Assembly: GCA_015183035.1 (NCBI GenBank)
Contig: JACZZP010000004.1
Span: forward strand, 744,001-808,000
Reading direction: 5' to 3'
From: Meloidogyne chitwoodi
Taxonomy: Eukaryota; Nematoda; Chromadorea; Rhabditida; Meloidogynidae
Length of the DNA stretch: 64,000 nt
The notes beneath the pieces were generated by a model, which was not told the DNA's origin, did no database searches, and saw nothing but the letters and a program-made list of their open reading frames with translations. This document shows positions 1 to 37,443 of the stretch, piece after piece. The position numbers and the translations under genes are program-made. Position 1 is the stretch's first letter; each line of letters starts with the position of its first letter.

Positions 1-67
1 GTTGAGTATTTTTTAAAATTACTTTATAAATGAAATAATAAATTAGTAAATAAATAATTGTAAATTT

Positions 68-235
68 AACTCTGATTATCTTTTCCTATTCACATATAAA
101 TGGTCAATTGAAATAATTGTCAAAAGTGTTAGTGTGACCGAGTTTCGTTCGTGACCTGACTTACCGGGCTCTGCTGCCTTTATGTCTATTGACAATTTTA
201 TGTGAATAAGAAAAGGAAATACTAGTCAGATAGTT
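68..235. mobile_element. Inverted-repeat (MITE-like) insertion
   Basis: The ends form an imperfect inverted repeat: the left begins AACTCTGATTATCTTTTCC and the right ends GGAAATACTAGTCAGATAGTT. Both arms carry TATTCACAT followed by GTCAAT. The middle has a GC-richer stretch with ACCGAGTTTCG-like sequence resembling the hAT MITE at 13935. I could not fix a target-site duplication, so the exact ends are uncertain. It lies in the receptor gene near its last exon. Confidence 0.5.
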
Positions 236-402
236 AATGAGTAAGTCTAAAATAACAAACTGTATTCATAGCAAAATTTTGTCAGAACTGCCAAATAAAT
301 CAATACAGATATACAAAATGGAATTAAAAGAGGTAAATCTCCGGGCATAAATATACCTCTCATAATAATGCTTAAAGATTAAGTTAATTTTTACTTTTTA
401 TC

Positions 403-476
403 AAAAAGACCGCAAGTTTTGCCCGTAGGGCAACCTACTCGCTAGTATTATAAAGGACTAAACTTGCAGACTTTTT
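403..476. mobile_element. Short fold-back element
   Basis: A 74-bp sequence with inverted ends: AAAAAGACCGCAAGTTTTGCCC on the left pairs with GGACTAAACTTGCAGACTTTTT on the right. The loop contains a CCCGTAGGG palindrome. This is probably a minute non-autonomous transposon. No coding capacity. Confidence 0.5.
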
Positions 477-487
477 AGTGCTCCCAG

Positions 488-676
488 AAAATTGGGCAGT
501 GAAGGAACAGTACAAAAACTTGTTAAGAAAATACAAAAATACATTAAAAAGACAAGAAAAATACAAAAACACTTAAAAAATGTTATGTTACTGATGTATT
601 TGTGTTTTTATGTATTTTTAATGTATTTTTGTATTTTATTGCAAGTTTTTGTACTGTTTCTTCACTGCCCAATTTT
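488..676. mobile_element. MITE with ~85-bp inverted arms (GGGCAGTGAAG ends)
   Basis: The left end (AAAATTGGGCAGTGAAGG) and right end (TTCACTGCCCAATTTT) are inverted copies, and the arms continue inward with ACAGTACAAAAACTTG and AATACAAAAATACATTAAAAA. A second CACTGCCCAATTTT lies just outside the right end. An open frame across it (492-740) is a by-product of the fold-back and not a gene. A related TTTCTTCACTGACCAATTTG end occurs before the P450 gene near 45950. Confidence 0.65.
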
Positions 677-1016
677 CCACTGCCCAATTTTCATAGCACG
701 CTTTTGTCGCATAAGTGAAAAAAGTGTTTGTGAACTTTAATTTTGCCCTTACTCGTACTTTGCTGTACAAGTACGAATTTGGTACTATCTTTCAAATACT
801 TTTAAAAAGTGCTGAAAAATTTATTATTTAATTATTCCTTGTTACCCTGTGGTTACTCCTGTAAAGATTTGTATAAAGGTTACGGATGTATAAATTACTG
901 AAAGAAGACATGTAGTAAAAATAATGTATTTAATATTTCTGTTAAAAATTTAAATTTTTAAATATTAATTCTTTCTTTTTCTGCTGTAATTAAAATAATA
1001 AAATAAACTGTAGAAG

Positions 1017-1257
1017 TGTTGTATATGATTAGTGGTCTTTTATAGACACTTTAACGGTCTAGTCAATAGACTATATAAGCACCAAGAAATAACCAGTCCA
1101 GATCCGATCATCCGATCTCGACTCAATCTCCAACTTCCCAACCTTCGCCTACAACTATATTTCAACGTGATAAACTGTTTGCTTATTGCTCGTCTACTCT
1201 TCAGTAAACCTCGGACACACCCCTGTTGTACTTAAGTAGGAAACTTAAGATACAACA
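1017..1257. mobile_element. Solo LTR, 241 bp, copy 1
   Basis: The element begins TGTTGTAT and ends ATACAACA (TG...CA termini) and is flanked by the 5-bp direct repeat AGAAG (1012-1016 and 1258-1262), as expected for LTR-retrotransposon integration. A TATATAAG box lies at about 1074. It is GC-richer than its surroundings. No internal domain or second LTR is nearby, so it is a solo LTR left by LTR-LTR recombination. It interrupts TM4 of the receptor on the minus strand. The open frames 1032-1235 and 1232-1510 partly lie in it and are not separate genes. Confidence 0.85.
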
Positions 1258-1992
1258 AGAAGGAAAGAACAAATATCCCAATAAACAAAAAAGTATACCT
1301 TTTGTTCCATATATTCTGATAACTAAAAATAAAGAAGACGGCATGAAAACGATTTAATGCCAAAACAGCCATATGTAAATATGATGCATTTAATCCAAAT
1401 GTGTAAATAATTTGTATAATGTATGTAAATATAAATTGTTTAAATTGTTGCTGTACAAAAAAAAGTAGATGATTATTTACGCATTGTATAATCATAATGG
1501 ACGTACTCATGATGTTAATACAAGACTTAAATTTAATAATATTTAAAAATTTGTTTTATTTATTTTTGCAATCCCAAGAAGCCAGCAACTTTTATCAAGT
1601 ATCATAAAGTAATAGGTTGACTTAAAAGTTTTCGGACGACTTATTTTATCAAAACTTTATTCAAAATTTATTGAAGTAAAAAAAGAAGTTACTAAAATAA
1701 GAACTAGTAAATAGTAAATAAGAATGAAAGGTGTTCGTGGTCACCCTTTATAATTTATATAAAGAGAGATGGATGAATGAATGACTTGAAACATTAAACT
1801 GTGCTTAGGTTGAATAAATTTTTTAAATATTTAACATAGTACCTTACTAAACAAAATCAAGAGTGGAATCTTTTCTTTTGAAAATTTATATAGTGGACGT
1901 ATTAATATTAGCAAAAAAATATTACACATTATAAGTATCAAACATGATAATTTATCACTTGTTGAAAACAAATAGTCAGTGTTGTTTAACAT

Positions 1993-2764
1993 TTTAAATA
2001 TTCTTTAATTGGAAGAATTTTTAACTGAAAAATTACAAAAAAATGTTTTAAAAATCACTCATAAGTTGATGAACGTTTTCTTCACATTATTTTGTAATTT
2101 TTGTTAATCCCAATCAACTTCCCCTATTCTCTTCTTTTGTAAGTGCTTTGCTTAATAGATTTATAATATATCCATTCAGCAATTTTATCCAATTTATAAT
2201 GTTAAGTACTCGCGACAAAATGGGTGGTGCTGTAAAGAAAGAATATCTAGAAATAATTTAAAATATTTATATACATAATACTTTTGTCCAAATTTATTTT
2301 AACTAGTTTTTCCTAATTAAAAATAAATATTTGTATTTACAAAATATACCACACAGAAGATTTAATTATTTAATACCACCCAGGCTAATGAATTTTTTTT
2401 TTAAATTTTAATACTGGAAAAAAATAATGACGACAGTAATTTTTAATAAATAAATACCTAATTATATTATTAGGCCTGATTGAATAATATTATCGATATA
2501 ACCATCCAAAGAAAGAGCTTAATAATCTTAAAAAAATAATTTATTAAAAAATTAAAAATATTATTTACAAAAATTCCCATGTTTTCAAATAAACAATAAA
2601 TTGTTTTTGCAGTGTGAGAGTTACTTTTACCAATAAAAATACTATAAATAAAATTTTAATTTTTTGCATTAAAAAATAATAAAATGTTTAAAATCATATT
2701 TTTATTAATTTAACAAATGTATGAAATTAAATAGTGTGCTAAGAATATTAAAAAATGATTTTTA
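1993..2764. other. AT-rich intergenic region
   Basis: Upstream region of the minus-strand receptor gene. I see no convincing exon, RNA gene or element. It is repeated at 10332-11103, 23077-23848 and 28840-29611. Confidence 0.5.
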
Positions 2765-3049
2765 TTGCCCAAAACATATTTAAAAAATACATACCAATCG
2801 ATTTCTACGTATCATCCTGAGTATGAATATTTATATAATAATTTATTAGCTGAAGCTAAGATTGATGAGTTTATGAGTATTGGTCTAGTAAAAAACACCC
2901 AAAATAGAAAAGTCAGGGTGTGTTGCCTAAATCTTGCTGATTCAATTCCCAAAAATCGCGGATCTGCAGGATCAAATAGTTGGCCTGATGTGACAGAAGC
3001 TGTTTCTGTTAGAAGTCTTTTATTTTGTTTTATGCATCCTAGGCATTAA
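2765..3049 (+). other. Orphan ORF, 94 codons, copy 1 (unidentified exon or relic)
   Basis: An open frame bounded upstream by TGA (2756-2758) and ending in TAA. It has no good ATG start and no clear splice acceptor, but its second half is GC-richer than its surroundings and reads like real protein, with VRVCCLNLADSIPKNRG and SNSWPDVTEAV followed by LLFCFMHPRH. I do not recognise the family. It may be a relic or an internal exon of an unresolved gene. It precedes the Cys-rich peptide gene by about 470 bp. Confidence 0.35.
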
Positions 3050-3520
3050 ATTTTTTTTTAATTCGGAATAAGTAAAGGAATATCTTGAATTATTAAAGTA
3101 AATATTTTCAAAAAATATTTTGATAAAATTTACTACATATTTACATATAATAAAGTAAATAAAAATAACTGGAAATGAAAAATAAAAAAATTATTTTAGA
3201 ATATTTTTTATGTACTTGTTTCTCCTTAACTTGTCGATTATGCAACGTATTTATTGTTTGATATTTATTTTAAATTTTTTTATAAATAGATAATAATACT
3301 TTGTTCCTTTAATGATGTATTTAGGAAAAATAAAAATTAAATAATGTTGCCTAAATTAAATAAATTTAGTGAAATATCTTATATAATATTTCCACGTAAA
3401 TAAATTTTTATTATAAACAAAAAATTTTAAAAAATAGTTTTGTTAGTTTATATAAATCCTCATGCTTATATACAATTTATAAACATTCTTATATTATTTA
3501 ATCAAATATTAATATTATAA
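3050..3520. other. AT-rich intergenic stretch
   Basis: No gene or element seen between the orphan ORF and the Cys-rich peptide gene. The sequence is A/T runs with few GC-containing words. Confidence 0.5.
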
Positions 3521-3655
3521 ATGATAAAACAAATTTTTATAATTTTATTAGTTTTTATAATGTTAATTTATGTAACTAAACAACAACCAGCCTGTTGTGC
3601 AGGGACTTGTAGCTGCTGTCCTTGCCCTGGATTATTTGAAGATTATTTAAAGTAA
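3521..3655 (+). CDS. Small secreted Cys-rich peptide (44 aa), copy 1
   Basis: An uninterrupted ATG-to-TAA frame encodes 44 residues. Residues 1-19 are a hydrophobic signal peptide (MIKQIFIILLVFIMLIYVT). The predicted mature part is about 25 residues, starting KQQPA, with six cysteines in the pattern CC-x3-C-x-CC-x-C, then PGLFEDYLK. The Cys-rich core is clearly GC-richer than the surrounding DNA, which supports coding. Family and target are unknown. By analogy with small secreted Cys-rich proteins of plant-parasitic nematodes it could be a gland-secreted effector or a defence-type peptide; that is inference. It lies about 1 kb upstream of, and in the same direction as, the endoglucanase gene. 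It was too short to appear in a standard ORF scan. Confidence 0.6.
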   Translation: MIKQIFIILLVFIMLIYVTKQQPACCAGTCSCCPCPGLFEDYLK

Positions 3656-4648
3656 TTTTAAAACATAAAAAAATATTTTATGAATACAAAATTAGAATAG
3701 AAAAAAAAAGATCCATCAACGAATAATTAAATAAATAAATTACTTTTTAGGCTCTAAATTTTAAATAAATCTTAATCTGACACTAAAAAAATAAAAATAA
3801 TAAATTAAGTTTGTTGGAAGTTTAAATACTTATGCATGATAAATAAAAATAATCAACAGATTAGAAGAATTATCAAAATTGTTATAATTTATTTTTATTT
3901 GTAAAATATTCTTATTAAATATGAATAAAATATATTTGTTTTTTTATGTAACTTTGCTGAAAAATAAATACCTAATAGCTTTTATATATTTTAAAATTGA
4001 TTACTAATATTTAAAAATAAAAAATGATTTTTTCGAATCTACATATGAATAAAAATTTTTAATTTTTTGGAGAAGCAGTTTCAGTTCGACAATGAAAATA
4101 GTTTAATATTTTTTATTAATAATTACCTAATTAGATTTTACAAAAAGAAAATTAATTTTAAAACAATTTTACACCTGTACATTTACCAAATTATTGCTAA
4201 AAATTAAAAAAAAATTAAGCTAAATTTTATATATTTTTAAAAAATTCTTTAAAACATTTGAAACTTTAATCTCTTTTTCATTTGCATACTCATTATTTTT
4301 TTCAAAAATAAAAATTAACTGAGATATCAGTGTATTTCTTTAATTCATAATTTTTAATTTTTCTTTTATTTAATAATTTATATCAAAAAGAGTAAATATT
4401 TAAAAAATCTATTTATTTTGTTGGCTTTTTTAAAATTTGTAGTTAGTTGAAAATTTTTAATTATTGGTTACTTAAATAATAAAAATGATGAATTATAAAC
4501 TGAAATTTGTTTAAACAACAGTTTTGTGTGGATTTTCCGGAAAATACATAAATAATTTGTATTGATTTTTTGTATTAATACAAATTTGAATTTTGCTTAA
4601 TTCAACCTCTTTTTTAATTTTTTTTTCATTAAACAAAATTTCTCAAAA
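3656..4648 (+). other. Upstream region of the endoglucanase gene
   Basis: About 1 kb of AT-rich DNA between the Cys-rich peptide and the GH5 start codon. A short palindromic TTTTCCGGAAAA lies near 4535, about 115 bp before the ATG, and is a possible control site. I see no other gene or element. It is repeated at 8448-9440 and 24740-25732. Confidence 0.4.
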
Positions 4649-6284
4649 ATGCTTAATAATTATTTAATATTAACTATTTTATTTATCTCTGTTTATTTAT
4701 TAATAGCATCGGCAGCTCTTCTGCCCTATGGAAAGTTGAAAGTAAATAAAGGTCAATTGACTGGAAATAATGGACAAATAGCTACATTGAGAGGAATTTC
4801 TCTTTGGTTAAGTCAATGGATAACTGAATTTTACTCTCCTAGTGTTGTAAAGGCGATAAAGTGTTTTTATAATGGAAATGTTGTAAGTCTCTTTATATTT
4901 TTTGAGGAAAATTGTTTAATAAATTTACACAACCTTTCCTGTATATTTTATTTTGTTTTCTTGAAACTGTGAAATTTAATTTAATGTTATTTTAAATTTA
5001 AGGTTCGTGCCGCAATCGGAACTTGTTGTTCTGGTTATTTGGAAAACCCTTCTTCTGCAATTAATGCAGCTACTACCATCGGAGATGCAGCAATTGAGGT
5101 AATTTAAATTTATTGAAATATTTTATTTTTAATTTAAAGAATGGAATTTACTTTATAATTGACTGGCACGATGTAGGAAATCAAAATTGTAAAAATGACG
5201 CAGAATTTAATAATTTCATTAATAGAGCAATAAACTTTTTTACAACAATTGTCAAAAAATACAAAGGCTCACCAAATATGCTTTTAGAACTTTGGAATGA
5301 ACCTGCTTCTACTTGCAGTTGGGAAAAATTGAAGCATTATTATAATGCTGTTCTTACTGTAATTAATTAGATAATTTTTGGGGAATTATAAATTTTAGGA
5401 GATTTTTTTTAATATTTTTCAATTTAACATTCCAATTTTTAAAATTTAAGGAGATTAGAAAAATTGACCCAAAAGTCGTTGTTATTCTCGGCACACCGCA
5501 ACAATCTACTGGTCCAAGCAATGAGGTTATCAACAATCCAGTTATTGGAGCAAACATAATGTTCATATTTTTAAAATAATTTTTTAAATTTTTGGTAGAT
5601 TACCATAAATAAATGTTTTAAATTATTTAGGTATTCTTTACATTTTTATTGTGTATCAGATCAACAACACATAAAAGATCAAAAACAAATGATTTTAAAT
5701 GCAAAGGCAAAAGGATTTGGAACATTTATAACTGAATATGGTGATGCAGATTTACTCAATCTAGATTCGCTCCGACCTGAAATAATGCAGTCATTGTAAG
5801 TTAAAGATGGAATTTTTAATTATATTTAATAAAATAAAAAAATTAAAAAAAATTTTTATTAATATAAATTGGGCTTACTGAATCTAAAGCGGTAATCTTC
5901 CTGCAAGTAAATAAATAGGTTTCTACCATTTGCGTCTTCGAATTTAGATATTGCGTCAAGCTAATTAAAGATAAACTAAAAAAAATTCCTGGCCAGCTTT
6001 AAAATTACCGAACTAAATTTTGAATTTTATATAAAACATTCTAGCTGGCAATTTATGGACCAAAACCATATTTCCTATGCAAAATGGTCACTTACAAATA
6101 AAGATGAAGTTTATTCATTAATGCTGCCATGGTGTAGAGCATCTCAGGCGTCTCAAGTATCATGCCTTAGTGTTTCAGGGAGATTAGTTAGACAACACAT
6201 GTTAACTCTAAATAATGGTATAATTAAAATTATTTAAAAATTTTAATAATTTTTAATTTAATTTTAGGTATTACTAATTGCTAA
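4649..6284 (+). CDS. GH5 beta-1,4-endoglucanase (cellulase), copy 1, complete, 7 exons
   Basis: Secreted glycoside hydrolase family 5 enzyme that cuts beta-1,4-glucan in plant cell walls. My model is 4649-4882, 5003-5098, 5140-5358, 5451-5560, 5631-5795, 6045-6217 and 6268-6284; phases agree and give 337 aa. A signal peptide covers residues 1-24. Family landmarks in order: RGISLW near 48, IDWHD at 117-121, acid/base Glu164 in LELWNEP, HFY at 224-226, nucleophile Glu255 in TEYG, and YAKWSL near 286. There is only a catalytic domain, with no linker or cellulose-binding module. Animal GH5 of this type is known from tylenchid nematodes and is attributed to horizontal transfer from bacteria. The sequence is rather divergent, with extra Cys residues (TCCSG, NQNC, STCSW). 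One donor (5561, GTTCAT) is weak but restores IMYSLHFY in frame. Confidence 0.9.
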
Positions 6285-6504
6285 TTTTGTTGTGCTAAAT
6301 TGATGAATTTTCGTCAATAGATAAATAAAATTAGATGAAAAAATCTTAATTAAAAATTTTATATTCTATTAATTTAACTAAAAATTTTTCAACTTTTAAT
6401 TTAATAAAAATTCTAATTGGGTGTTCATAATTATTGCTGTTTTTTATCTAAAAAAGGAATCAACAAGAAATTGAAACACTTGAAATGTTTCAACAAGAAA
6501 TTGA
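6285..6504. other. Endoglucanase 3' flank with a coiled-coil-like fragment
   Basis: AT-rich sequence. At 6461-6531 two near-copies of CAACAAGAAATTGAAA read as QQEIETLEMF/QQEIEIRKLEKIY then TAA in one frame, after an AAAAAG acceptor-like site. The second copy runs directly into the satellite. It may be the last exon of a lost gene, or chance. Confidence 0.25.
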
Positions 6505-7018
6505 AATTCGCAAACTTGAAAAAATTTATTAAAGTACAATCTCGATATTAGACCACTAGAATAAATTCGCACACTTGAAAAAATTTATTAAAGTACAATC
6601 TCGATATTAGACCTCTAGAATAAATTCGCACACTTGAAAAAATTTATTAAAGTACAATCTCGATATTAGACCTCTAGAATAAATTCGCACACTTGAAAAA
6701 ATTTATTAAAGTACAATCTCGATATTAGACCTCTAGAATAAATTCGCACACTTGAAAAAATTTATTAAAGTACAATCTCGATATTAGACCTCTAGAATAA
6801 ATTCGCACACTTGAAAAAATTTATTAAAGTACAATCTCGATATTAGACCACTAGAATAAATTCGCACACTTGAAAAAATTTATTAAAGTACAATCTCGAT
6901 ATTAGACCTCTAGAATAAATTCGCACACTTGAAAAAATTTATTAAAGTACAATCTCGATATTAGACCACTAGAATAAATTCGCACACTTGAAAAAATTTA
7001 TTAAAGTACAATCTCGAT
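6505..7018. repeat. 59-bp tandem satellite, array 1 (~8.7 units)
   Basis: The period is exactly 59 bp, with core AATTCGCACACTTG, AAAAAATTTATTAAAG, TACAATCTCGATATTAG and ACCWCTAGAAT. The first unit has CGCAAAC instead of CGCACAC. The variable site CCACT/CCTCT runs A,T,T,T,T,A,T,A. The array ends abruptly in CTCGAT at 7018, where the inverted arm begins. Confidence 0.95.
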
Positions 7019-8447
7019 TAGGAAATATGGTTTTGGTCCATAAATTGCCAGCTAGAATGTTTTATATAAAATTCAAAATTTAGTTCGGTAATTTTAAAGC
7101 TGGCCAGGAATTTTTTTTAGTTTATCTTTAATTAGCTTGACGCAATATCTAAATTCGAAGACGCAAATGGTAGAAACCTATTTATTTACTTGCAGGAAGA
7201 TTACCGCTTTAGATTCAGTAAGCCCAATTTATATTAATAAAAATTTTTTTTAATTTTTTTATTTTATTAAATATAATTAAAAATTCCATCTTTAACTTAC
7301 AATGACTGCATTATTTCAGGTCGGAGCGAATCTAGATTGAGTAAATCTGCATCACCATATTCAGTTATAAATGTTCCAAATCCTTTTGCCTTTGCATTTA
7401 AAATCATTTGTTTTTGATCTTTTATGTGTTGTTGATCTGATACACAATAAAAATGTAAAGAATACCTAAATAATTTAAAACATTTATTTATGGTAATCTA
7501 CCAAAAATTTAAAAAATTATTTTAAAAATATGAACATTATGTTTGCTCCAATAACTGGATTGTTGATAACCTCATTGCTTGGACCAGTAGATTGTTGCGG
7601 TGTGCCGAGAATAACAACGACTTTTGGGTCAATTTTTCTAATCTCCTTAAATTTTAAAAATTGGAATGTTAAATTGAAAAATATTAAAAAAAATCTCCTA
7701 AAATTTATAATTCCCCAAAAATTATCTAATTAATTACAGTAAGAACAGCATTATAATAATGCTTCAATTTTTCCCAACTGCAAGTAGAAGCAGGTTCATT
7801 CCAAAGTTCTAAAAGCATATTTGGTGAGCCTTTGTATTTTTTGACAATTGTTGTAAAAAAGTTTATTGCTCTATTAATGAAATTATTAAATTCTGCGTCA
7901 TTTTTACAATTTTGATTTCCTACATCGTGCCAGTCAATTATAAAGTAAATTCCATTCTTTAAATTAAAAATAAAATATTTCAATAAATTTAAATTACCTC
8001 AATTGCTGCATCTCCGATGGTAGTAGCTGCATTAATTGCAGAAGAAGGGTTTTCCAAATAACCAGAACAACAAGTTCCGATTGCGGCACGAACCTTAAAT
8101 TTAAAATAACATTAAATTAAATTTCACAGTTTCAAGAAAACAAAATAAAATATACAGGAAAGGTTGTGTAAATTTATTAAACAATTTTCCTCAAAAAATA
8201 TAAAGAGACTTACAACATTTCCATTATAAAAACACTTTATCGCCTTTACAACACTAGGAGAGTAAAATTCAGTTATCCATTGACTTAACCAAAGAGAAAT
8301 TCCTCTCAATGTAGCTATTTGTCCATTATTTCCAGTCAATTGACCTTTATTTACTTTCAACTTTCCATAGGGCAGAAGAGCTGCCGATGCTATTAATAAA
8401 TAAACAGAGATAAATAAAATAGTTAATATTAAATAATTATTAAGCAT
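7018..8447 (-). pseudogene. GH5 endoglucanase, copy 2, 3'-truncated at a palindrome junction
   Basis: Minus-strand mirror of copy 1 with exons 1-5 intact (8447-8214, 8093-7998, 7956-7738, 7645-7536, 7465-7301) and only the first 32 bp of exon 6 (7051-7020). The join to the satellite creates an in-frame TAA at once (7020-7018), so the product would be 285 residues ending ...NHIS. Both catalytic glutamates remain, but the last 52 residues, including the family's YAKWSL strand, are lost. The barrel is therefore incomplete and the enzyme is probably inactive. Confidence 0.85.
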
Positions 8448-9440
8448 TTTTGAGAAATTTTGTTTAATGAAAAAAAAATTAAAAAAGAGGTTGAATTAAG
8501 CAAAATTCAAATTTGTATTAATACAAAAAATCAATACAAATTATTTATGTATTTTCCGGAAAATCCACACAAAACTGTTGTTTAAACAAATTTCAGTTTA
8601 TAATTCATCATTTTTATTATTTAAGTAACCAATAATTAAAAATTTTCAACTAACTACAAATTTTAAAAAAGCCAACAAAATAAATAGATTTTTTAAATAT
8701 TTACTCTTTTTGATATAAATTATTAAATAAAAGAAAAATTAAAAATTATGAATTAAAGAAATACACTGATATCTCAGTTAATTTTTATTTTTGAAAAAAA
8801 TAATGAGTATGCAAATGAAAAAGAGATTAAAGTTTCAAATGTTTTAAAGAATTTTTTAAAAATATATAAAATTTAGCTTAATTTTTTTTTAATTTTTAGC
8901 AATAATTTGGTAAATGTACAGGTGTAAAATTGTTTTAAAATTAATTTTCTTTTTGTAAAATCTAATTAGGTAATTATTAATAAAAAATATTAAACTATTT
9001 TCATTGTCGAACTGAAACTGCTTCTCCAAAAAATTAAAAATTTTTATTCATATGTAGATTCGAAAAAATCATTTTTTATTTTTAAATATTAGTAATCAAT
9101 TTTAAAATATATAAAAGCTATTAGGTATTTATTTTTCAGCAAAGTTACATAAAAAAACAAATATATTTTATTCATATTTAATAAGAATATTTTACAAATA
9201 AAAATAAATTATAACAATTTTGATAATTCTTCTAATCTGTTGATTATTTTTATTTATCATGCATAAGTATTTAAACTTCCAACAAACTTAATTTATTATT
9301 TTTATTTTTTTAGTGTCAGATTAAGATTTATTTAAAATTTAGAGCCTAAAAAGTAATTTATTTATTTAATTATTCGTTGATGGATCTTTTTTTTTCTATT
9401 CTAATTTTGTATTCATAAAATATTTTTTTATGTTTTAAAA

Positions 9441-9575
9441 TTACTTTAAATAATCTTCAAATAATCCAGGGCAAGGACAGCAGCTACAAGTCCCTGCACA
9501 ACAGGCTGGTTGTTGTTTAGTTACATAAATTAACATTATAAAAACTAATAAAATTATAAAAATTTGTTTTATCAT
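9441..9575 (-). CDS. Small secreted Cys-rich peptide (44 aa), copy 2
   Basis: Exact inverted copy of the gene at 3521-3655. Signal peptide and six-cysteine core are intact. It lies upstream of the truncated endoglucanase. Confidence 0.58.
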   Translation of the reverse strand: MIKQIFIILLVFIMLIYVTKQQPACCAGTCSCCPCPGLFEDYLK

Positions 9576-10046
9576 TTATAATATTAATATTTGATTAAAT
9601 AATATAAGAATGTTTATAAATTGTATATAAGCATGAGGATTTATATAAACTAACAAAACTATTTTTTAAAATTTTTTGTTTATAATAAAAATTTATTTAC
9701 GTGGAAATATTATATAAGATATTTCACTAAATTTATTTAATTTAGGCAACATTATTTAATTTTTATTTTTCCTAAATACATCATTAAAGGAACAAAGTAT
9801 TATTATCTATTTATAAAAAAATTTAAAATAAATATCAAACAATAAATACGTTGCATAATCGACAAGTTAAGGAGAAACAAGTACATAAAAAATATTCTAA
9901 AATAATTTTTTTATTTTTCATTTCCAGTTATTTTTATTTACTTTATTATATGTAAATATGTAGTAAATTTTATCAAAATATTTTTTGAAAATATTTACTT
10001 TAATAATTCAAGATATTCCTTTACTTATTCCGAATTAAAAAAAAAT

Positions 10047-10331
10047 TTAATGCCTAGGATGCATAAAACAAAATAAAAGACTTCTAACAGAAACAGCTTC
10101 TGTCACATCAGGCCAACTATTTGATCCTGCAGATCCGCGATTTTTGGGAATTGAATCAGCAAGATTTAGGCAACACACCCTGACTTTTCTATTTTGGGTG
10201 TTTTTTACTAGACCAATACTCATAAACTCATCAATCTTAGCTTCAGCTAATAAATTATTATATAAATATTCATACTCAGGATGATACGTAGAAATCGATT
10301 GGTATGTATTTTTTAAATATGTTTTGGGCAA
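10047..10331 (-). other. Orphan ORF, copy 2
   Basis: Inverted copy of the unidentified open frame at 2765-3049, with no change seen. Confidence 0.35.
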
Positions 10332-11838: not shown

Positions 11839-12079
11839 TGTTGTATCTTAAGTTTCCTACTTAAGTACAACAGGGGTGTGTCCGAGGTTTACTGAAGAGT
11901 AGACGAGCAATAAGCAAACAGTTTATCACGTTGAAATATAGTTGTAGGCGAAGGTTGGGAAGTTGGAGATTGAGTCGAGATCGGATGATCGGATCTGGAC
12001 TGGTTATTTCTTGGTGCTTATATAGTCTATTGACTAGACCGTTAAAGTGTCTATAAAAGACCACTAATCATATACAACA
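11839..12079. mobile_element. Solo LTR, copy 2
   Basis: Inverted copy of the LTR at 1017-1257, flanked by CTTCT at 11834-11838 and 12080-12084, the reverse complement of the AGAAG duplication. Confidence 0.85.
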
Positions 12080-12608: not shown

Positions 12609-12619
12609 CTGGGAGCACT

Positions 12620-16513: not shown

Positions 16514-16533
16514 TTTAATTAATTTATAAAATT

Positions 16534-21560: not shown

Positions 21561-21571
21561 AGTGCTCCCAG

Positions 21572-27368: not shown

Positions 27369-27588
27369 TTTTGTTGTGCTAAATTGATGAATTTTCGTCA
27401 ATAGATAAATAAAATTAGATGAAAAAATCTTAATTAAAAATTTTATATTCTATTAATTTAACTAAAAATTTTTCAACTTTTAATTTAATAAAAATTCTAA
27501 TTGGGTGTTCATAATTATTGCTGTTTTTTATCTAAAAAAGGAATCAACAAGAAATTGAAACACTTGAAATGTTTCAACAAGAAATTGA

Positions 27589-28509
27589 AATTCGCAAACT
27601 TGAAAAAATTTATTAAAGTACAATCTCGATATTAGACCACTAGAATAAATTCGCACACTTGAAAAAATTTATTAAAGTACAATCTCGATATTAGACCTCT
27701 AGAATAAATTCGCACACTTGAAAAAATTTATTAAAGTACAATCTCGATATTAGACCTCTAGAATAAATTCGCACACTTGAAAAAATTTATTAAAGTACAA
27801 TCTCGATATTAGACCTCTAGAATAAATTCGCACACTTGAAAAAATTTATTAAAGTACAATCTCGATATTAGACCTCTAGAATAAATTCGCACACTTGAAA
27901 AAATTTATTAAAGTACAATCTCGATATTAGACCTCTAGAATAAATTCGCACACTTGAAAAAATTTATTAAAGTACAATCTTGATATTAGACCTCTAGAAT
28001 AAATTCGCACACTTGAAAAAATTTATTAAAGTACAATCTCGATATTAGACCTCTAGAATAAATTCGCACACTTGAAAAAATTTATTAAAGTACAATCTCG
28101 ATATTAGACCTCTAGAATAAATTCGCACACTTGAAAAAATTTATTAAAGTACAATCTTGATATTAGACCTCTAGAATAAATTCGCACACTTGAAAAAATT
28201 TATTAAAGTACAATCTCGATATTAGACCTCTAGAATAAATTCGCACACTTGAAAAAATTTATTAAAGTACAATCTCGATATTAGACCTCTAGAATAAATT
28301 CGCACACTTGAAAAAATTTATTAAAGTACAATCTCGATATTAGACCTCTAGAATAAATTCGCACACTTGAAAAAATTTATTAAAGTACAATCTCGATATT
28401 AGACCTCTAGAATAAATTCGCACACTTGAAAAAATTTATTAAAGTACAATCTCGATATTAGACCACTAGAATAAATTCGCAAACTTGAAAAAATTTATTA
28501 AAGTACAAT
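27589..28509. repeat. 59-bp tandem satellite, array 2 (~15.6 units)
   Basis: Same 59-bp unit as array 1 but nearly twice as long. Two units have CTTGATATT for CTCGATATT (near 27980 and 28157), seen nowhere in array 1. Both the first and the last unit carry the variant CGCAAAC. The last unit stops at ...GTACAAT and the inverted P3 arm begins. Confidence 0.95.
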
Positions 28510-28554
28510 AATAATTCAAGATATTCCTTTACTTATTCCGAATTAAAAAAAAAT

Positions 28555-28839
28555 TTAATGCCTAGGATGCATAAAACAAAATAAAAGACTTCTAACAGAA
28601 ACAGCTTCTGTCACATCAGGCCAACTATTTGATCCTGCAGATCCGCGATTTTTGGGAATTGAATCAGCAAGATTTAGGCAACACACCCTGACTTTTCTAT
28701 TTTGGGTGTTTTTTACTAGACCAATACTCATAAACTCATCAATCTTAGCTTCAGCTAATAAATTATTATATAAATATTCATACTCAGGATGATACGTAGA
28801 AATCGATTGGTATGTATTTTTTAAATATGTTTTGGGCAA
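28555..28839 (-). other. Orphan ORF, copy 4
   Basis: Inverted copy of the frame at 23849-24133, only about 45 bp from the satellite junction. Confidence 0.35.
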
Positions 28840-30346
28840 TAAAAATCATTTTTTAATATTCTTAGCACACTATTTAATTTCATACATTTGTTAAATTAAT
28901 AAAAATATGATTTTAAACATTTTATTATTTTTTAATGCAAAAAATTAAAATTTTATTTATAGTATTTTTATTGGTAAAAGTAACTCTCACACTGCAAAAA
29001 CAATTTATTGTTTATTTGAAAACATGGGAATTTTTGTAAATAATATTTTTAATTTTTTAATAAATTATTTTTTTAAGATTATTAAGCTCTTTCTTTGGAT
29101 GGTTATATCGATAATATTATTCAATCAGGCCTAATAATATAATTAGGTATTTATTTATTAAAAATTACTGTCGTCATTATTTTTTTCCAGTATTAAAATT
29201 TAAAAAAAAAATTCATTAGCCTGGGTGGTATTAAATAATTAAATCTTCTGTGTGGTATATTTTGTAAATACAAATATTTATTTTTAATTAGGAAAAACTA
29301 GTTAAAATAAATTTGGACAAAAGTATTATGTATATAAATATTTTAAATTATTTCTAGATATTCTTTCTTTACAGCACCACCCATTTTGTCGCGAGTACTT
29401 AACATTATAAATTGGATAAAATTGCTGAATGGATATATTATAAATCTATTAAGCAAAGCACTTACAAAAGAAGAGAATAGGGGAAGTTGATTGGGATTAA
29501 CAAAAATTACAAAATAATGTGAAGAAAACGTTCATCAACTTATGAGTGATTTTTAAAACATTTTTTTGTAATTTTTCAGTTAAAAATTCTTCCAATTAAA
29601 GAATATTTAAAATGTTAAACAACACTGACTATTTGTTTTCAACAAGTGATAAATTATCATGTTTGATACTTATAATGTGTAATATTTTTTTGCTAATATT
29701 AATACGTCCACTATATAAATTTTCAAAAGAAAAGATTCCACTCTTGATTTTGTTTAGTAAGGTACTATGTTAAATATTTAAAAAATTTATTCAACCTAAG
29801 CACAGTTTAATGTTTCAAGTCATTCATTCATCCATCTCTCTTTATATAAATTATAAAGGGTGACCACGAACACCTTTCATTCTTATTTACTATTTACTAG
29901 TTCTTATTTTAGTAACTTCTTTTTTTACTTCAATAAATTTTGAATAAAGTTTTGATAAAATAAGTCGTCCGAAAACTTTTAAGTCAACCTATTACTTTAT
30001 GATACTTGATAAAAGTTGCTGGCTTCTTGGGATTGCAAAAATAAATAAAACAAATTTTTAAATATTATTAAATTTAAGTCTTGTATTAACATCATGAGTA
30101 CGTCCATTATGATTATACAATGCGTAAATAATCATCTACTTTTTTTTGTACAGCAACAATTTAAACAATTTATATTTACATACATTATACAAATTATTTA
30201 CACATTTGGATTAAATGCATCATATTTACATATGGCTGTTTTGGCATTAAATCGTTTTCATGCCGTCTTCTTTATTTTTAGTTATCAGAATATATGGAAC
30301 AAAAGGTATACTTTTTTGTTTATTGGGATATTTGTTCTTTCCTTCT

Positions 30347-30587
30347 TGTTGTATCTTAAGTTTCCTACTTAAGTACAACAGGGGTGTGTCCGAGGTTTAC
30401 TGAAGAGTAGACGAGCAATAAGCAAACAGTTTATCACGTTGAAATATAGTTGTAGGCGAAGGTTGGGAAGTTGGAGATTGAGTCGAGATCGGATGATCGG
30501 ATCTGGACTGGTTATTTCTTGGTGCTTATATAGTCTATTGACTAGACCGTTAAAGTGTCTATAAAAGACCACTAATCATATACAACA
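30347..30587. mobile_element. Solo LTR, copy 4
   Basis: Same element and same CTTCT duplications as 11839-12079, at offset 18508. Confidence 0.85.
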
Positions 30588-30927
30588 CTTCTACAGTTTA
30601 TTTTATTATTTTAATTACAGCAGAAAAAGAAAGAATTAATATTTAAAAATTTAAATTTTTAACAGAAATATTAAATACATTATTTTTACTACATGTCTTC
30701 TTTCAGTAATTTATACATCCGTAACCTTTATACAAATCTTTACAGGAGTAACCACAGGGTAACAAGGAATAATTAAATAATAAATTTTTCAGCACTTTTT
30801 AAAAGTATTTGAAAGATAGTACCAAATTCGTACTTGTACAGCAAAGTACGAGTAAGGGCAAAATTAAAGTTCACAAACACTTTTTTCACTTATGCGACAA
30901 AAGCGTGCTATGAAAATTGGGCAGTGG

Positions 30928-31116
30928 AAAATTGGGCAGTGAAGAAACAGTACAAAAACTTGCAATAAAATACAAAAATACATTAAAAATACATAAAAAC
31001 ACAAATACATCAGTAACATAACATTTTTTAAGTGTTTTTGTATTTTTCTTGTCTTTTTAATGTATTTTTGTATTTTCTTAACAAGTTTTTGTACTGTTCC
31101 TTCACTGCCCAATTTT
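30928..31116. mobile_element. MITE with GGGCAGTGAAG ends, copy 4
   Basis: Copy of 12420-12608. Confidence 0.6.
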
Positions 31117-31127
31117 CTGGGAGCACT

Positions 31128-31201
31128 AAAAAGTCTGCAAGTTTAGTCCTTTATAATACTAGCGAGTAGGTTGCCCTACGGGCAAAACTTGCGGTCTTTT
31201 T
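31128..31201. mobile_element. Short fold-back element, copy 4
   Basis: Copy of 12620-12693. Confidence 0.45.
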
Positions 31202-31368
31202 GATAAAAAGTAAAAATTAACTTAATCTTTAAGCATTATTATGAGAGGTATATTTATGCCCGGAGATTTACCTCTTTTAATTCCATTTTGTATATCTGTA
31301 TTGATTTATTTGGCAGTTCTGACAAAATTTTGCTATGAATACAGTTTGTTATTTTAGACTTACTCATT

Positions 31369-31536
31369 AACTATCTGACTAGTATTTCCTTTTCTTATTC
31401 ACATAAAATTGTCAATAGACATAAAGGCAGCAGAGCCCGGTAAGTCAGGTCACGAACGAAACTCGGTCACACTAACACTTTTGACAATTATTTCAATTGA
31501 CCATTTATATGTGAATAGGAAAAGATAATCAGAGTT
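31369..31536. mobile_element. Inverted-repeat insertion, copy 4
   Basis: Copy of 12861-13028. Confidence 0.45.
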
Positions 31537-32442
31537 AAATTTACAATTATTTATTTACTAATTTATTATTTCATTTATAAAGTAATTTTAAAAAATACTC
31601 AACCATCTGGAAACGAAAATACAGCAAAAGGACGTATTATTATTTTTGTTGTATGCTTGTTTAGCATTGCTCCCTGCCCTATGTTAATTGGATTATATTA
31701 TTTATTTACTATTTATAGAGGATATGCGACAAATTCAAAAGAAGACCAATCGACTTTATTTATAATTATTTTTACCATTTTTAATGCTAATTATACACTC
31801 ATGCATTGCATTGAAGAACTTTGTTTAGTTATAATTTCAAAAGATTTGCGCAAATTAATTAAAAACCAATTTAAAAAAAATATTCAAACTAATATTGTAA
31901 CACCACCTATTTTTGTTTTAAATAATTCACAAAATGTTAGAATTCGTCAAATTAGTGTACAACGAAATAATTTGTTAAATAATTGATTTTAGGATTGTTA
32001 ATAAATTCTTCCCTGAATGTCAAAATAAAGTAAATAATTTGTAAACATAATAGTGTTATAACGGATAACGGTTACCAATTTTTTAGGTATTATTGAAATA
32101 TCGATAACGGAAAATCGCGTTCTAAGCACAAAAATAGCAAATTGTCGTCATAGACTGCAAATTTAAATTAGGAATATATAGTGGACTAATATGTATTTGT
32201 TTTATACTAAACCAATAATAGGCAATAAACTGAAATTTTACCGTTGTAAAAGCAGAGCAGCCGAGTTAATTCCAGCTTTTGCTATAAAGTAACAATCGCT
32301 AAATAAAAAGAAAAGCTTTAATTTGCCTCAAATCATCTAAATTATTTCCAATCCATATCCATCCTATCGAATATTTATTTTAACTTTTTTATAGCCTTTT
32401 ATACATAAATATATTATATTTAATATTTTAACATGTAGAGTT

Positions 32443-32663
32443 CAGTGTTCTCCCGACCGAGTTTCGGTCATGACCAAAAATGACTTGACCTGACCTGACC
32501 GAAATTTTTGGTCAGTTCAGATCATTTTTATGACCGAAAAATGTCGGTCAGTAATGTTTTGGTCATTTTCTACGTTATAAAAGTGAAACCTGACCGAAAT
32601 TGCGGTCATGGTCAGGTTAGATCATTTTTGATGACCGGGAAAAGGCCGGTCAGGAGAACACTG
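32443..32663. mobile_element. hAT-type MITE, copy 3
   Basis: Copy of 13935-14155, with flanking GTAGAGTT on both sides. Confidence 0.88.
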
Positions 32664-33158
32664 GTAGAGTTCAATTAATTACATTTAGAAAAATTATAAA
32701 ATAATTTTTTTATATTTTTTATTTTCCATTTAGAGCTACATCGGTACAAAAATATATCGAAAATCGTATACAAAATTAACGAAAATCGAAAATAAAAAAA
32801 CCTTAATAATAGAAAGTCGGAAAAATTTATAAAAAGATATTGATACTTTCGCATAGTGAATTAATAAAAATTGTATTACTCTAATAATTATCGTCTAAAT
32901 TTTTTAATATTTTGCTCTATATATCTTTTATTTAGATTATTAGTTTATAACAACTAATTTGAGATATAAAATAGTTCATAAAAAATAGTGAATTTATAAA
33001 TTTTAGAAATTCATTGTTTAGCAAAAATTAAAAAGAAAAATTATTTTTTTATTTAAATAAATAGGAAATGTGAAGCATTTTCAGTGGTTTAATGAAAATA
33101 CAATTAAAAAAATTTTTTTTTATATTTAAATTTTATAAAATAATAAAAAAATTATAAT

Positions 33159-35021
33159 TCACCAAGCTTGTTTTGTTTGTATTTTATTCTTTTGATTTGA
33201 AGGTAATGTTCCCTCTAACTGATTTAATTTATTATGTTCATATTTAACAAAAGGAGATGTTCCACCAATTCCAGTCGTTGAAGCTTTTTTATTACAGAAA
33301 CGATTTAAAGCTGTTTTATAGTCAGTACTAAATTTACTTTTAATATAATTTTAATTTATTTATTTATTTACCTAAAAATGTACAAAACAGGTAAATTACA
33401 AGAAATTACAAAATTACTGATACATCCAAGTATTGAAGTTATATAAAATATTTGGATATCATTAAATGAAAAAATAGGCAAAGTAAAATGAACAAATGAA
33501 TTTAACATCCATCTTTATTAATTATAAAATTATTAATTTTTTATTTATAATTACCCAGTAAGAACCATTGTCATAATAACTGATAAAGATTTAAACACTT
33601 TTTTAGTGTAATTTTCGACTTCTAAAATTTAATTTAAAATTTTTTTAAATTTATTATTTAAATTAAGTACGATTATTATTTGTAGATCTCCATTTAAGAA
33701 TTACCCAAATAAAAATATAATTTAATGTTGAAAATAAAATTAAAATTAAATTGTTACGAAAACTCTGAAAAATATTTATATTTAAAAAAAATTAAATATT
33801 TAGTTAAACCATTTGACCCAAATCTTTTTGATAACAATCAGGAAGTGAACAAATAACTTGACTAAAAAATAATAAAAAAATATTTTTAAAATAATATAAT
33901 TACGTTTTTGGTATAGAAATACATATTTGCCAACATAACCAAAGAATATAAAATGAATAAATTGTTGAAATTAAAATTGAAAAATAAACAATTAAACGTG
34001 AATTTTTGTTAACAGAAAAACTATAAAAATAAATTTAAGTTTAATTTAATTAAAAAATAATAATAATATTTATAAAAATAGTTTACTCTGTCAAATGCAA
34101 TAAAACAATTAAAATATTATTAGACAATTTTTCGAATTAATTTTTAATTTAATAAATTCTTATTTTTTAAAATAATATTTGTTTAGTTAAATATGATTAA
34201 TTGGAATCAACTTTATATTGTGATAGACTAATTATTATATAATTAGATAATCGCCAATATAGCTATATCTATAATGGTGATTTTTCTGTTTTTAAATCCA
34301 AACTTTCAATTATTTAATATTTTAATTTTTAAAATATATATTCCTACATAAATAATTTTTTATAAAAACAAACGTAATTGGAAAAAGAACAGACAGAAGA
34401 CGATCAAATCCAATAAAAAATGTTCCACATAAACTCATAGTTATAGATAAAATTGAATAAATCATTAAATAAAAACAAATATCCAAATTAATAAAATTAA
34501 TACCAGTTAAAACAATATACATTGAAATTGAATTACTTGTTTGATAAATTGAAGTAAATAAAGCATCTATAGCTATTAAATAATTACAGCTACTATTTAA
34601 TGATCTGAGAGAGAGAGAGAGAGAAAATAAATATTATAATTAAAGTTTAAGTGTCTTAAAACTTAAAAAACTATAAACTTAAAATATCACACAAATATTT
34701 TGAGGATTAAATATCTGACCTAACTCCCATATTCTGACCAATTCCTCATATTTTTAAAAAACACTTAAGGGAATATATTCACTTTGATTTATATAAATAT
34801 TAATTAATTTACTTGTCTTTAATAGTTATCCAAAATAATAAAAAATTAAATAAAGATCCAATAATAGAAATTGACCAACGAATTCCAACAAATATTATTA
34901 AAATTAAAGAAGGTCCAGAATTTGAATAAATATCATAAAGAGTTATTGTTGGTAATTTATTATTATTTATAGGTGATTGTAATGTTGAAGATAATATTGA
35001 AGTATTATCATTTAAAGACAT
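33159..35021 (-). CDS. srsx-like chemoreceptor, copy 3, complete, 8 exons
   Basis: Copy of 14651-16513 at offset 18508. Intact reading frame, 359 aa. Confidence 0.72.
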
Positions 35022-37443
35022 TTTAATTAATTTATAAAATTATTTTCAAGAATTTTTTTATTGTTTTGAATGATAGTGCAATACCTGTTAATTTAATATT
35101 AATTTTTTTAATTTTTTCTAAATGTAACAAAATAAGAATATTACTTAATAAACTCACACAAATTAAATATCAGAATAAAAAATGTAATATAATATTATAA
35201 CACTATTATTTTAAAATAATTATTTTATATATTTTTGTTTAGATTTTCTTTAAAATAATAAATAATTTTTAGAAAAATTTTTTAACACGCAAAGATAAAT
35301 TTTTTAAGATTTGCAGTTTATATAATTCTTAATAAAATTAAACCTTAAAATAATTTTTTATATTTAAATAATTATTTATTTTAAACAAAAAAAGTTAAAC
35401 AATAAAATATTAATACATTATTTTGCAATAAATTTAAATATTTATTCTTAATTTAAAATTAAAAAATATTTTTTTTTAATAATTTAAAGAAAAATAAATT
35501 AAAGAAATAATTAATTTTTATTTTTACTTTTTTAGATTCAAAAGCGTCATATTTTTTGTTTAAATAAATTTTTATTGTTTCCGAATAATCTTTTATGAAT
35601 TACAAGGCGATGGAGGAAATTGTCACGTTTATAGTTTGTGACTGTTTTTTATATTTTTTAAATTTAAATATTATATAAACTCTAAAATATATTATTAGAA
35701 TAGAAGAAAAACAATTAGTTCGTGTTGGCCTGTTACAAGTTTTGGTTGTACCAGAATCAAACTTTAAAAAAAAATATTTAAATTAATTAATTAATACAAA
35801 TGTGGTCATTTCAATGTAAACATTTAATGATATAAATTATTAAAAATGTTTAAAAAAATACGTTTGAAGTAGAAAATTAAGATTAAATGAGAAAAATATT
35901 ATCACGTAACAATTCTTTACTTAGCAATATATTGAAAATTAAAAAAAATATTTTTAAATTGTATAAAATAATTATTATTTTAATTAATAATTTAAATAGT
36001 TTAATATAAAAGTAATTAGGTATTTAAATAAGAGTTAAAAAGCTTAATAGGTATTTAAATTTTATATTAAAAAGTAACATTTTTGTGAGATTAACTAGAT
36101 ATTAAATGAGATTTTTTTGTAAACAAAAAATATAATCTAAAATTTTTAAAAATAAATTTTATAAATTAATTAAAATGTCTTTAAATGATAATACTTCAAT
36201 ATTATCTTCAACATTACAATCACCTATAAATAATAATAAATTACCAACAATAACTCTTTATGATATTTATTCAAATTCTGGACCTTCTTTAATTTTAATA
36301 ATATTTGTTGGAATTCGTTGGTCAATTTCTATTATTGGATCTTTATTTAATTTTTTATTATTTTGGATAACTATTAAAGACAAGTAAATTAATTAATATT
36401 TATATAAATCAAAGTGAATATATTCCCTTAAGTGTTTTTTAAAAATATGAGGAATTGGTCAGAATATGGGAGTTAGGTCAGATATTTAATCCTCAAAATA
36501 TTTGTGTGATATTTTAAGTTTATAGTTTTTTAAGTTTTAAGACACTTAAACTTTAATTATAATATTTATTTTCTCTCTCTCTCTCTCTCAGATCATTAAA
36601 TAGTAGCTGTAATTATTTAATAGCTATAGATGCTTTATTTACTTCAATTTATCAAACAAGTAATTCAATTTCAATGTATATTGTTTTAACTGGTATTAAT
36701 TTTATTAATTTGGATATTTGTTTTTATTTAATGATTTATTCAATTTTATCTATAACTATGAGTTTATGTGGAACATTTTTTATTGGATTTGATCGTCTTC
36801 TGTCTGTTCTTTTTCCAATTACGTTTGTTTTTATAAAAAATTATTTATGTAGGAATATATATTTTAAAAATTAAAATATTAAATAATTGAAAGTTTGGAT
36901 TTAAAAACAGAAAAATCACCATTATAGATATAGCTATATTGGCGATTATCTAATTATATAATAATTAGTCTATCACAATATAAAGTTGATTCCAATTAAT
37001 CATATTTAACTAAACAAATATTATTTTAAAAAATAAGAATTTATTAAATTAAAAATTAATTCGAAAAATTGTCTAATAATATTTTAATTGTTTTATTGCA
37101 TTTGACAGAGTAAACTATTTTTATAAATATTATTATTATTTTTTAATTAAATTAAACTTAAATTTATTTTTATAGTTTTTCTGTTAACAAAAATTCACGT
37201 TTAATTGTTTATTTTTCAATTTTAATTTCAACAATTTATTCATTTTATATTCTTTGGTTATGTTGGCAAATATGTATTTCTATACCAAAAACGTAATTAT
37301 ATTATTTTAAAAATATTTTTTTATTATTTTTTAGTCAAGTTATTTGTTCACTTCCTGATTGTTATCAAAAAGATTTGGGTCAAATGGTTTAACTAAATAT
37401 TTAATTTTTTTTAAATATAAATATTTTTCAGAGTTTTCGTAAC
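33753..37443. repeat. Inverted repeat P4 (arms 33753-35041 and 36155-37443)
   Basis: Positions pair to a sum of 71196. The spacer 35042-36154 is a second, same-orientation copy of the P2 centre. The right arm ends at 37443, inside exon 5 of an srsx gene, where the sequence switches to a homologous but different paralogue. This is the right-hand limit of the amplified material; sequence beyond it looks single-copy apart from srsx paralogy. Confidence 0.95.
35042..36154. promoter_or_regulatory. Second copy of the divergent srsx spacer
   Basis: Same-orientation copy of 16534-17646. It separates srsx copy 3 (minus) from the chimeric srsx gene (plus), so both would share it as upstream region. 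Confidence 0.45.

What the first reader, a model, noticed from the sequence alone, without database searches (positions are those of the whole stretch)
1..37443. Chain of interlocking, near-identical giant palindromes amplifying a parasitism/chemosensory block
Four inverted repeats (axis sums 13096, 34180, 52688, 71196) tile 37 kb in alternating orientation with arms of 1.3-9.5 kb and no net indels. A cell-wall hydrolase, a secreted Cys-rich peptide and two receptor genes are multiplied as one block. If real, it is an extremely recent inverted-duplication cascade that changes dosage of host-interaction genes, or a mechanism for keeping copies identical by arm-to-arm conversion in a possibly asexual genome.
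Basis: partly seen in the sequence, partly recalled or inferred. Interest (0 to 1): 0.88.

Follow-up and report, generated by a model that had tools for sequence, protein, structure and literature searches.

The report
Chain of recent inverted gene duplicates
In the genome of a plant-parasitic worm, a 10-kb block with two smell-receptor genes and a cellulase gene appears about ten times in mostly alternating directions with almost no sequence differences, which looks like a very recent gene amplification but needs the raw reads to rule out an assembly error.

Summary
The palindromes are in the sequence, and the window shows only their right part. In the parent contig (C25, 2.72 Mb; 47.5-Mb, 30-contig assembly, inferred Meloidogyne chitwoodi) the array spans 678280-781491 (103 kb). 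Eleven arm copies (10 long, 1 stub), mostly alternating, surround five identical 1,082-bp spacers. After masking truncated ends, 15 columns vary over 89,956 aligned letters. Full arms hold a GH5 cellulase, an srx-like and an srsx receptor and end in a 59-bp minisatellite whose 108 genome hits all lie in the array.

Unequal truncations, joints with 0-3 bp of microhomology, four minisatellite versions among five, long asymmetric spacers and a paralogue tract in only the two outermost arms argue against fold-back reads. A mirrored 30.5-kb half shows nested inverted duplication; the rightmost copy is a chimeric receptor gene.

Best reading: a real, very recent in-place inverted amplification with at least one conversion or exchange. 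Copy number and order are unproven: contigs C16/C17 repeat the left flank and join it to another contig, and no reads were available. Interesting and testable, but of a known kind.

The parts
1..6503 (-). Arm P3R (right part; the arm starts left of the window at C25:740548). Holds a GH5 gene on the + strand (ORF pieces from 4649 to about 6237) and part of the srx-like receptor gene
6504..7018 (+). Minisatellite array D, 59-bp unit, 8.7 copies, joined at 7018/7019 (J4, 0 bp microhomology by eye) to a truncated arm; lies at the centre of the 30.5-kb master palindrome
7019..16548 (+). Arm P4F, truncated at its far end inside the last GH5 exon by J4
7021..8447 (-). GH5 cellulase gene in P4F (exon pieces; WNEP and TEYG motifs, read by eye), cut in its C-terminal exon by J4
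11092..13478 (+). Receptor gene 2 (srx-like 7TM GPCR) in P4F; the stretch between its exon pieces carries a dispersed ~245-bp repeat and a fold-back element
14654..16531 (-). Receptor gene 1 (srsx 7TM GPCR) in P4F, starting next to spacer S; extent approximate, from ORF pieces
16549..17630 (+). Spacer S, 1,082 bp, five copies at 100% in the genome (3 minus, 2 plus); lies between two head-to-head copies of receptor gene 1
17631..27587 (-). Arm P4R, full length (receptor gene 1 on +, receptor gene 2 on -, GH5 on +)
27588..28509 (+). Minisatellite array E, 15.6 copies; identical, in mirror image, to array C at C25:728587-729508; ends in junction J5 (1 bp microhomology by eye)
28510..35056 (+). 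Arm P5F, truncated: lacks the GH5 part, keeps both receptor genes
35057..36138 (+). Spacer S, rightmost copy
36139..37491 (-). Arm P5R, 1,353-bp stub: exons 1-3 and the start of exon 4 of receptor gene 1
36139..38260 (+). Chimeric srsx receptor gene: amplified 5' half (exons 1-3) joined in exon 4 (J6, about 19 bp of shared sequence) to a paralogous 3' half in unamplified flank; frames read by eye
37492..45220 (+). Right flank with older tandem srsx duplicates (42772-43455 is 97% identical to 17640-18322; 44914-45220 is 93% identical to 37929-38237)

Best explanation
A roughly 10-kb chromosomal block (GH5 cellulase, srx-like receptor, srsx receptor) next to a satellite-rich flank was amplified in place, very recently, by successive inverted and direct duplications.

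Proposed steps, inferred from the anatomy: (1) a head-to-head pair of srsx receptor genes around spacer S gave the first palindrome F-S-R. (2) A second turn-around on the satellite side (59-bp minisatellite M plus spacer U) made the chain ...S-R-M-U-M-F-S.... (3) Breaks rejoined with 0-3 bp of homology gave truncated arms and direct repeats (J1, J3). (4) A fold-back at J4 copied about 30 kb in mirror image, which duplicated J3 as J5. (5) Conversion or exchange moved at least one paralogue tract between arms, and a chimeric receptor stands at the right edge.

Shown: the anatomy, the junction sequences, the tract and the near-identity, all in the assembly. Inferred: the order of steps, physical reality, and any change of gene dosage.
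For: Eleven arm copies, 15 variable columns in 89,956 aligned letters, truncated ends masked. Ten full-length 100% hits of the arm probe, all in one stretch of C25. Turn-arounds have long, asymmetric spacers: S 1,082 bp; J4 941 bp; U 1,088 bp plus minisatellite; sum-52688 axis 4,329 bp. Joints J0, J1, J3/J5 and J4 show 1, 3, 1 and 0 bp of microhomology; J6 lies in shared exon sequence (by eye). Five minisatellite arrays carry four unit patterns; only C and E agree, as the master palindrome predicts. The far ends of the five full arms keep about 1.5 units of the left flank's 30-bp satellite, and M shares 18 of 21 bases with that unit, so the copies arose here. An 8-substitution paralogue tract is shared by only the two outermost arms. 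All 108 genome hits of the M pattern (up to 3 mismatches) lie in the array. A second, separate GH5 palindrome (1,255-bp arms, 100%, 219-bp spacer) lies on C26.
Against: No reads, depth or second assembly could be examined. C16 and C17 duplicate the left flank (first 20 kb of C16 against C25: 0 substitutions, 35 gap letters) and by 140 kb match C11 instead of C25, so the assembly contradicts itself left of the array. Near-zero difference among copies could partly come from polishing with reads that map to many copies. Arrays C and E are identical, so the orientation of the 44-kb stretch between J3 and J5 is not fixed by local sequence. If DNA was pooled from many animals, the contig may merge variants. 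The C26 palindrome could equally show a tendency of this assembly to make palindromes. No background rate was measured. In one search the GH5 match in each of the 7 array copies includes one TAG, which I take to lie just past the exon end, but no transcript confirms it.
Confidence: 0.6

Rival explanations
1. Assembly artefact or over-resolution: one real palindrome (or a few copies) was unrolled into a chain when the assembler traversed a tangled repeat graph bounded by satellite arrays.
For: C16/C17 are near-identical twin contigs that copy the left flank and join it to C11 sequence, with clustered single-base gaps at the C16 end examined. A 17-kb 30-bp satellite stands at the left edge. Arrays C and E, and junctions J3 and J5, are one junction passed twice. 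Artificial palindromes occur in amplified-DNA long reads (PMC6218980, passages).
Against: J1, U, J3/J5, J4 and J6 are distinct joints that a path through one palindrome would not create. Four different minisatellite versions. Long asymmetric spacers. Paralogue tract only in the outermost arms. Neighbouring joints lie 21 kb apart or less by the coordinates, so reads somewhat longer than that could have ordered them.
Confidence: 0.25
2. An older palindromic array kept identical by frequent arm-to-arm gene conversion, like the large palindromes of primate sex chromosomes.
For: Similarity fades over about 20 bp at the spacer edge instead of stopping sharply. The outermost arms share a paralogue tract, so conversion or exchange has happened at least once.
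Against: Conversion would not by itself create identical truncation junctions in mirror image, nor the 30.5-kb master symmetry. Only one private substitution lies inside the long arms, so youth suffices. No relative's genome was available to show age.
Confidence: 0.12
3. The array is real but variable between individuals or partly extrachromosomal, and the contig is one composite of several forms.
For: Near-identical inverted repeats recombine easily, and the 44-kb segment between J3 and J5 can invert without changing local sequence (inference). Reversible high-copy inverted amplification is known in Candida albicans (PMC7371428, passages).
Against: Both flanks are attached in C25. No direct evidence of other forms was seen, and none could be sought without reads.
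Confidence: 0.2

Closest known systems
108-kb chemoreceptor-rich tandem duplication of Caenorhabditis elegans chromosome V (PMC2728738, passages)
   Same: Very recent (99.7% identical) nematode segmental duplication rich in chemosensory genes, with a new gene at its junction
   Different: One head-to-tail duplication flanked by transposons; here about ten mostly inverted copies with microhomology junctions and two kinds of turn-around
Inverted copy-number amplification through long inverted repeats and breakage-fusion-bridge in Candida albicans (PMC7371428, passages)
   Same: Stepwise high-copy inverted amplification with fold-back junctions
   Different: There it goes with a dicentric chromosome and loss of the distal end under drug selection; here both flanks remain in the contig, and only J6 lies in longer shared sequence (about 19 bp)
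ODIRA inverted triplication in yeast (PMC10766183, passages)
   Same: Interstitial chain of alternating copies with two turn-arounds and both flanks kept
   Different: ODIRA junctions use 2-14 bp inverted repeats mostly 40-80 bp apart; the spacers here are 0.9 kb or longer
Internal telomeric-repeat palindrome of Meloidogyne hapla scaffold S1 (PMC12643312, passages)
   Same: Large read-supported palindrome of a tandem repeat inside a Meloidogyne chromosome
   Different: That one is a satellite palindrome; here genes are amplified, and the 59-bp repeat is found only in this array
Palindromes of mitotic Meloidogyne (PMC5465968, passages)
   Same: Inverted duplicated gene blocks on one scaffold in the genus
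   Different: Those had the divergence of the other duplicated regions and were not found in M. hapla, M. javanica or M. floridensis; these copies are nearly identical

Membership tests
Recent inverted gene amplification (class) | Inverted copies with near-zero divergence at one place | tested here: met
Recent inverted gene amplification (class) | Raised physical copy number | not testable with these tools
   no reads or depth available
ODIRA | Short inverted repeats within about 100 bp at the turn-arounds | tested here: not met
   spacers 941, 1,082, 1,088 (plus minisatellite) and 4,329 bp; the paper explains spacing over 1 kb by a secondary deletion of one arm
ODIRA | Interstitial, both flanks kept | tested here: met
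   C25 continues on both sides, with the C16/C17 caveat
ODIRA | Replication origin inside the amplified segment | not testable with these tools
   no origin data
Breakage-fusion-bridge | Loss of the sequence distal to the amplified block | tested here: not met
   by coordinates the contig runs on for about 660 kb left and 1.9 Mb right of the array (contig length); only 634-898 kb was read
Conversion-maintained palindrome (primate sex-chromosome type) | Arm-to-arm conversion tracts | tested here: inconclusive
   one tract shared by the outermost arms; too little variation elsewhere
Whole-genome-amplification or missed-adapter read artefact | Turn-around with almost no spacer | tested here: not met
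   spacers of 0.9 kb or more; that a tiny spacer marks this artefact is recalled, and the paper searched does not use the word spacer
GH5 cellulase | PF00150 match above cut-off | tested here: met
   49 bits against a cut-off of 23.5 for the main exon; seven copies in the array
srsx chemoreceptor (gene 1) | PF10320 match above cut-off | tested here: met
   35.4 bits against 24.1 for one exon
srx chemoreceptor (gene 2) | PF10328 match above cut-off | tested here: met
   27.7 bits against 23.8 for one exon; other 7TM families also match below their cut-offs, so the subfamily is uncertain
Meloidogyne chitwoodi assembly (species) | Species identity of the window | tested here: inconclusive
   47.48 Mb in 30 contigs, low GC, GH5 genes; primers JMV1 and JMV2 (recalled) match exactly 15 times and once, but no JMV1 hit lies near the JMV2 hit; name inferred

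The most novel reading that the evidence does not exclude
The array is a live, expandable palindromic amplifier in a meiotic root-knot nematode: copies of a cellulase and chemoreceptor block are gained, lost, inverted and converted between arms at high rate, changing gene dosage and minting chimeric receptors (as at window 36139-38260) between isolates within a few thousand generations.
Probability: 0.2. Interest if true: 0.75.

Novelty: new member of a known kind. Interest (0 to 1): 0.45.

Why it matters
If real, it catches inverted gene amplification in an animal almost at birth, with junctions, a junction copied in mirror image and a chimeric receptor gene all still readable. It would also show that large gene palindromes occur in a meiotic Meloidogyne, whereas an earlier study found none in M. 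hapla (PMC5465968, passages). It offers a copy-number marker for comparing isolates. If false, it flags a reference-genome error that inflates cellulase and receptor counts.

Tried and rejected
Telomere idea: the 59-bp repeat might have been a telomeric satellite as in M. hapla; rejected, since all 108 genome hits of its pattern lie inside the array.

Templated-filler idea for spacer U: its 412-bp exact match to C25:1371162-1371573 looked like template switching. Rejected: the piece has 49-bp terminal inverted repeats and a different 8-bp target duplication at each site (by eye), so it is a hAT-like transposon insertion.

Simple missed-adapter artefact: rejected because of the long asymmetric spacers. 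Simple breakage-fusion-bridge: disfavoured because both flanks persist. ODIRA in strict form: not met on spacing.

Unamplified single copy elsewhere: looked for with a 2-kb and a 3-kb arm probe; the matches outside the array are partial and diverged (67-93%). In one search only 40 of 113 first-look candidates were scored; all 29 were.

Print: a search for Meloidogyne, palindrome, gene conversion and genome gave 5 papers; a search with at least two of chitwoodi, palindrom, inverted repeat and segmental duplication found 3,875 papers, of which the 15 listed do not hold the word chitwoodi. The paper announcing the M. chitwoodi genome was not seen; only its reference was. None of this shows that the array is unpublished.

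Full report
What was checked. Self-comparison of the window finds all four inverted repeats at the stated axes. The window is C25:744001-808000 of a 47,477,280-base, 30-contig genome. Fetching C25:634001-744000 and 808001-898000 shows that the array is larger than the window: it runs from 678280 to 781491. Coordinates below are on C25; subtract 744000 for window positions.

Anatomy. From left to right: 30-bp satellite (661415-678280) | J0 | arm P1F (to 687868), spacer S, arm P1R (688951-696277) | J1 | arm R' (696275-705578), minisatellite A (705579-708082), spacer U (708083-709170), minisatellite B (709171-711000), arm P2F (711001-720957), S, arm P2R (722040-728587) | J3 | minisatellite C (728587-729508), arm P3F (729509-739465), S, arm P3R (740548-750503), minisatellite D (750504-751018) | J4 | arm P4F (751019-760548), S, arm P4R (761631-771587), minisatellite E (771588-772509) | J5 | arm P5F (772510-779056), S, arm P5R (780139-781491) | J6 | right flank. 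P1R and R' face the same way; the other neighbours alternate. S occurs five times in the genome at 100% over its full 1,082 bp, three times minus and twice plus. A master palindrome with 30.5-kb arms is centred at 750548, with a 941-bp spacer.

Variation. Eleven arms (10 long, 1 stub of 1,353 bp) were aligned. One search left out the first 432 columns of P1F, where P1F has satellite in place of about 0.3 kb of the other arms, and the broken ends of P1R, P2R, P5F and R'. In what remains, 15 columns vary over 89,956 aligned letters: one private substitution in P3F, three at the very edge of P5R, eight within 17 bp shared by P1F and P5R, and three beside S that follow the orientation of S. The eight shared changes match the paralogous exon that continues into the right flank, so a tract of that paralogue sits in both outermost arms. 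This is the only trace of conversion or exchange found. The five minisatellite arrays have 43, 31, 16, 9 and 16 units or part-units in four different patterns; C and E are identical. All 108 genome hits of the 59-bp pattern (up to 3 mismatches) lie in them: 63 forward and 45 reverse, both genome-wide and within the region fetched.

Junctions. Read by eye: J0 1 bp, J1 3 bp, J3/J5 1 bp and J4 0 bp of shared sequence. J6 lies in about 19 bp shared by two paralogous exons. The five full arms keep about 1.5 units of the 30-bp satellite between the gene block and the minisatellite, and the 59-bp unit shares 18 of 21 bases with the 30-bp unit (stretch chosen by eye). The copies therefore still carry the original left neighbour.

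Genes. Pfam supports a GH5 cellulase (PF00150, 49 bits), an srsx receptor (PF10320, 35.4 bits) and an srx-like receptor (PF10328, 27.7 bits); of 10 ORF pieces given, 6 had no match at E up to 1. The array holds 7 GH5 matches; each includes one TAG, which by the frames lies just past the exon end. By reading frames, P4F is cut in its last exon by J4 and P1F has a changed tail; the other five keep it. From the arm extents, the srx-like gene lies in 10 arms, and the srsx gene lies in 9 arms, is truncated in R', and is chimeric in P5R, where amplified exons 1-3 join a paralogous 3' half. No transcript or expression data were examined for these copies.

Spacer U. Its first 105 bases belong to a dispersed satellite. 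Bases 604-1015 are a hAT-like element with 49-bp inverted ends, also at C25:1371162-1371573. So U looks like ordinary repeat-rich DNA, not filler made at the break.

Is it real? For: distinct joints, distinct minisatellites, long asymmetric spacers, edge-weighted variation. Against: contigs C16 (153,282 bp) and C17 (153,258 bp) are twins, 100% identical over the first 20 kb and the last 1.5 kb, though only 98% over a 500-base piece at 60 kb. The first 20 kb of C16 matches C25:650583-670609 with no substitutions and 35 gap letters, 32 of them in its first 5.7 kb. At 60 kb C16 still matches C25 (610178-610676), but at 140 kb it matches C11 (735915-736414). So the assembly holds two stories for the left neighbourhood. 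No raw reads could be examined. I put 0.6 on a real recent array and 0.25 on a mainly assembly-made chain. The figures for the older and the variable forms overlap with these, because those readings are not exclusive.

Species. The name Meloidogyne chitwoodi is inferred: assembly size and contig number (recalled for that species), contig scale in line with the N50 of 2.3 Mb given for its reference in PMC12002905 (first of two parts read), low GC, GH5 genes, and exact hits of recalled diagnostic primers, which did not lie near each other.

Known relatives of the phenomenon. C. elegans has a recent, 99.7% identical 108-kb duplication rich in chemosensory genes, with a new gene at its junction (PMC2728738, passages), and newborn C. 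elegans duplicates are often adjacent and inverted (PMC2728529, one passage). Yeast ODIRA (PMC10766183, passages) and Candida inverted amplification (PMC7371428, passages) show mechanisms that give inverted copies. Strict ODIRA spacing is not met here, and breakage-fusion-bridge does not fit intact flanks. M. hapla carries a read-supported internal satellite palindrome (PMC12643312, passages). A survey of parthenogenetic animals found palindromes few and warned of assembly-made ones (PMC7953838, passages).

Age. One private substitution in the long arms, over about 90 kb of aligned letters, means extreme youth or strong homogenisation. With a C. elegans-like mutation rate (recalled, about 3e-9 per site per generation) it would mean some thousands of generations. 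Polishing could hide differences, so this is a rough figure only.

Noticed in passing
G000 contigs C16 and C17 (L029-L032, L034, L035): Twin 153-kb contigs that repeat C25 from about 670 to 610 kb in reverse and at 140 kb match C11 near 736 kb; redundancy plus a contradictory join in the assembly.
   Followed up: partly
L033 (C26:2551501-2559000), 2228-3482 and 3702-4956: A second, separate GH5 palindrome: 1,255-bp arms at 100%, 219-bp spacer, head-to-head genes.
   Followed up: partly
L037 (C25:1370901-1371800), 262-673, and spacer U at C25:708083-709170: A 412-bp hAT-like non-autonomous element with 49-bp terminal inverted repeats and 8-bp target duplications, identical at two places 660 kb apart.
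   Followed up: yes
L039 (C16:80001-80500): A frame that looks like polinton/Maverick DNA polymerase B (read by eye), between the last C16 place checked that matches C25 and the one that matches C11; not pursued.
   Followed up: no
window 55462-56410 and C25:876626-877666 (L026): A 42-bp array of 22.6 copies, and a 15-bp array of 69.4 perfect copies.
   Followed up: no
window 30347-30587 and equivalents: A dispersed ~245-bp repeat within the srx-like receptor gene; several genome pairs lie about 2.5 kb apart in the same direction, like terminal repeats of an element.
   Followed up: no
window 12419-12609 and equivalents: A fold-back (self-inverted) element of about 190 bp within the same receptor gene.
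   Followed up: no
C25, about 610-618 kb against 661-678 kb: Match counts suggest a second, oppositely oriented 30-bp satellite array bounding a ~43-kb segment left of the array; inferred, not read.
   Followed up: partly
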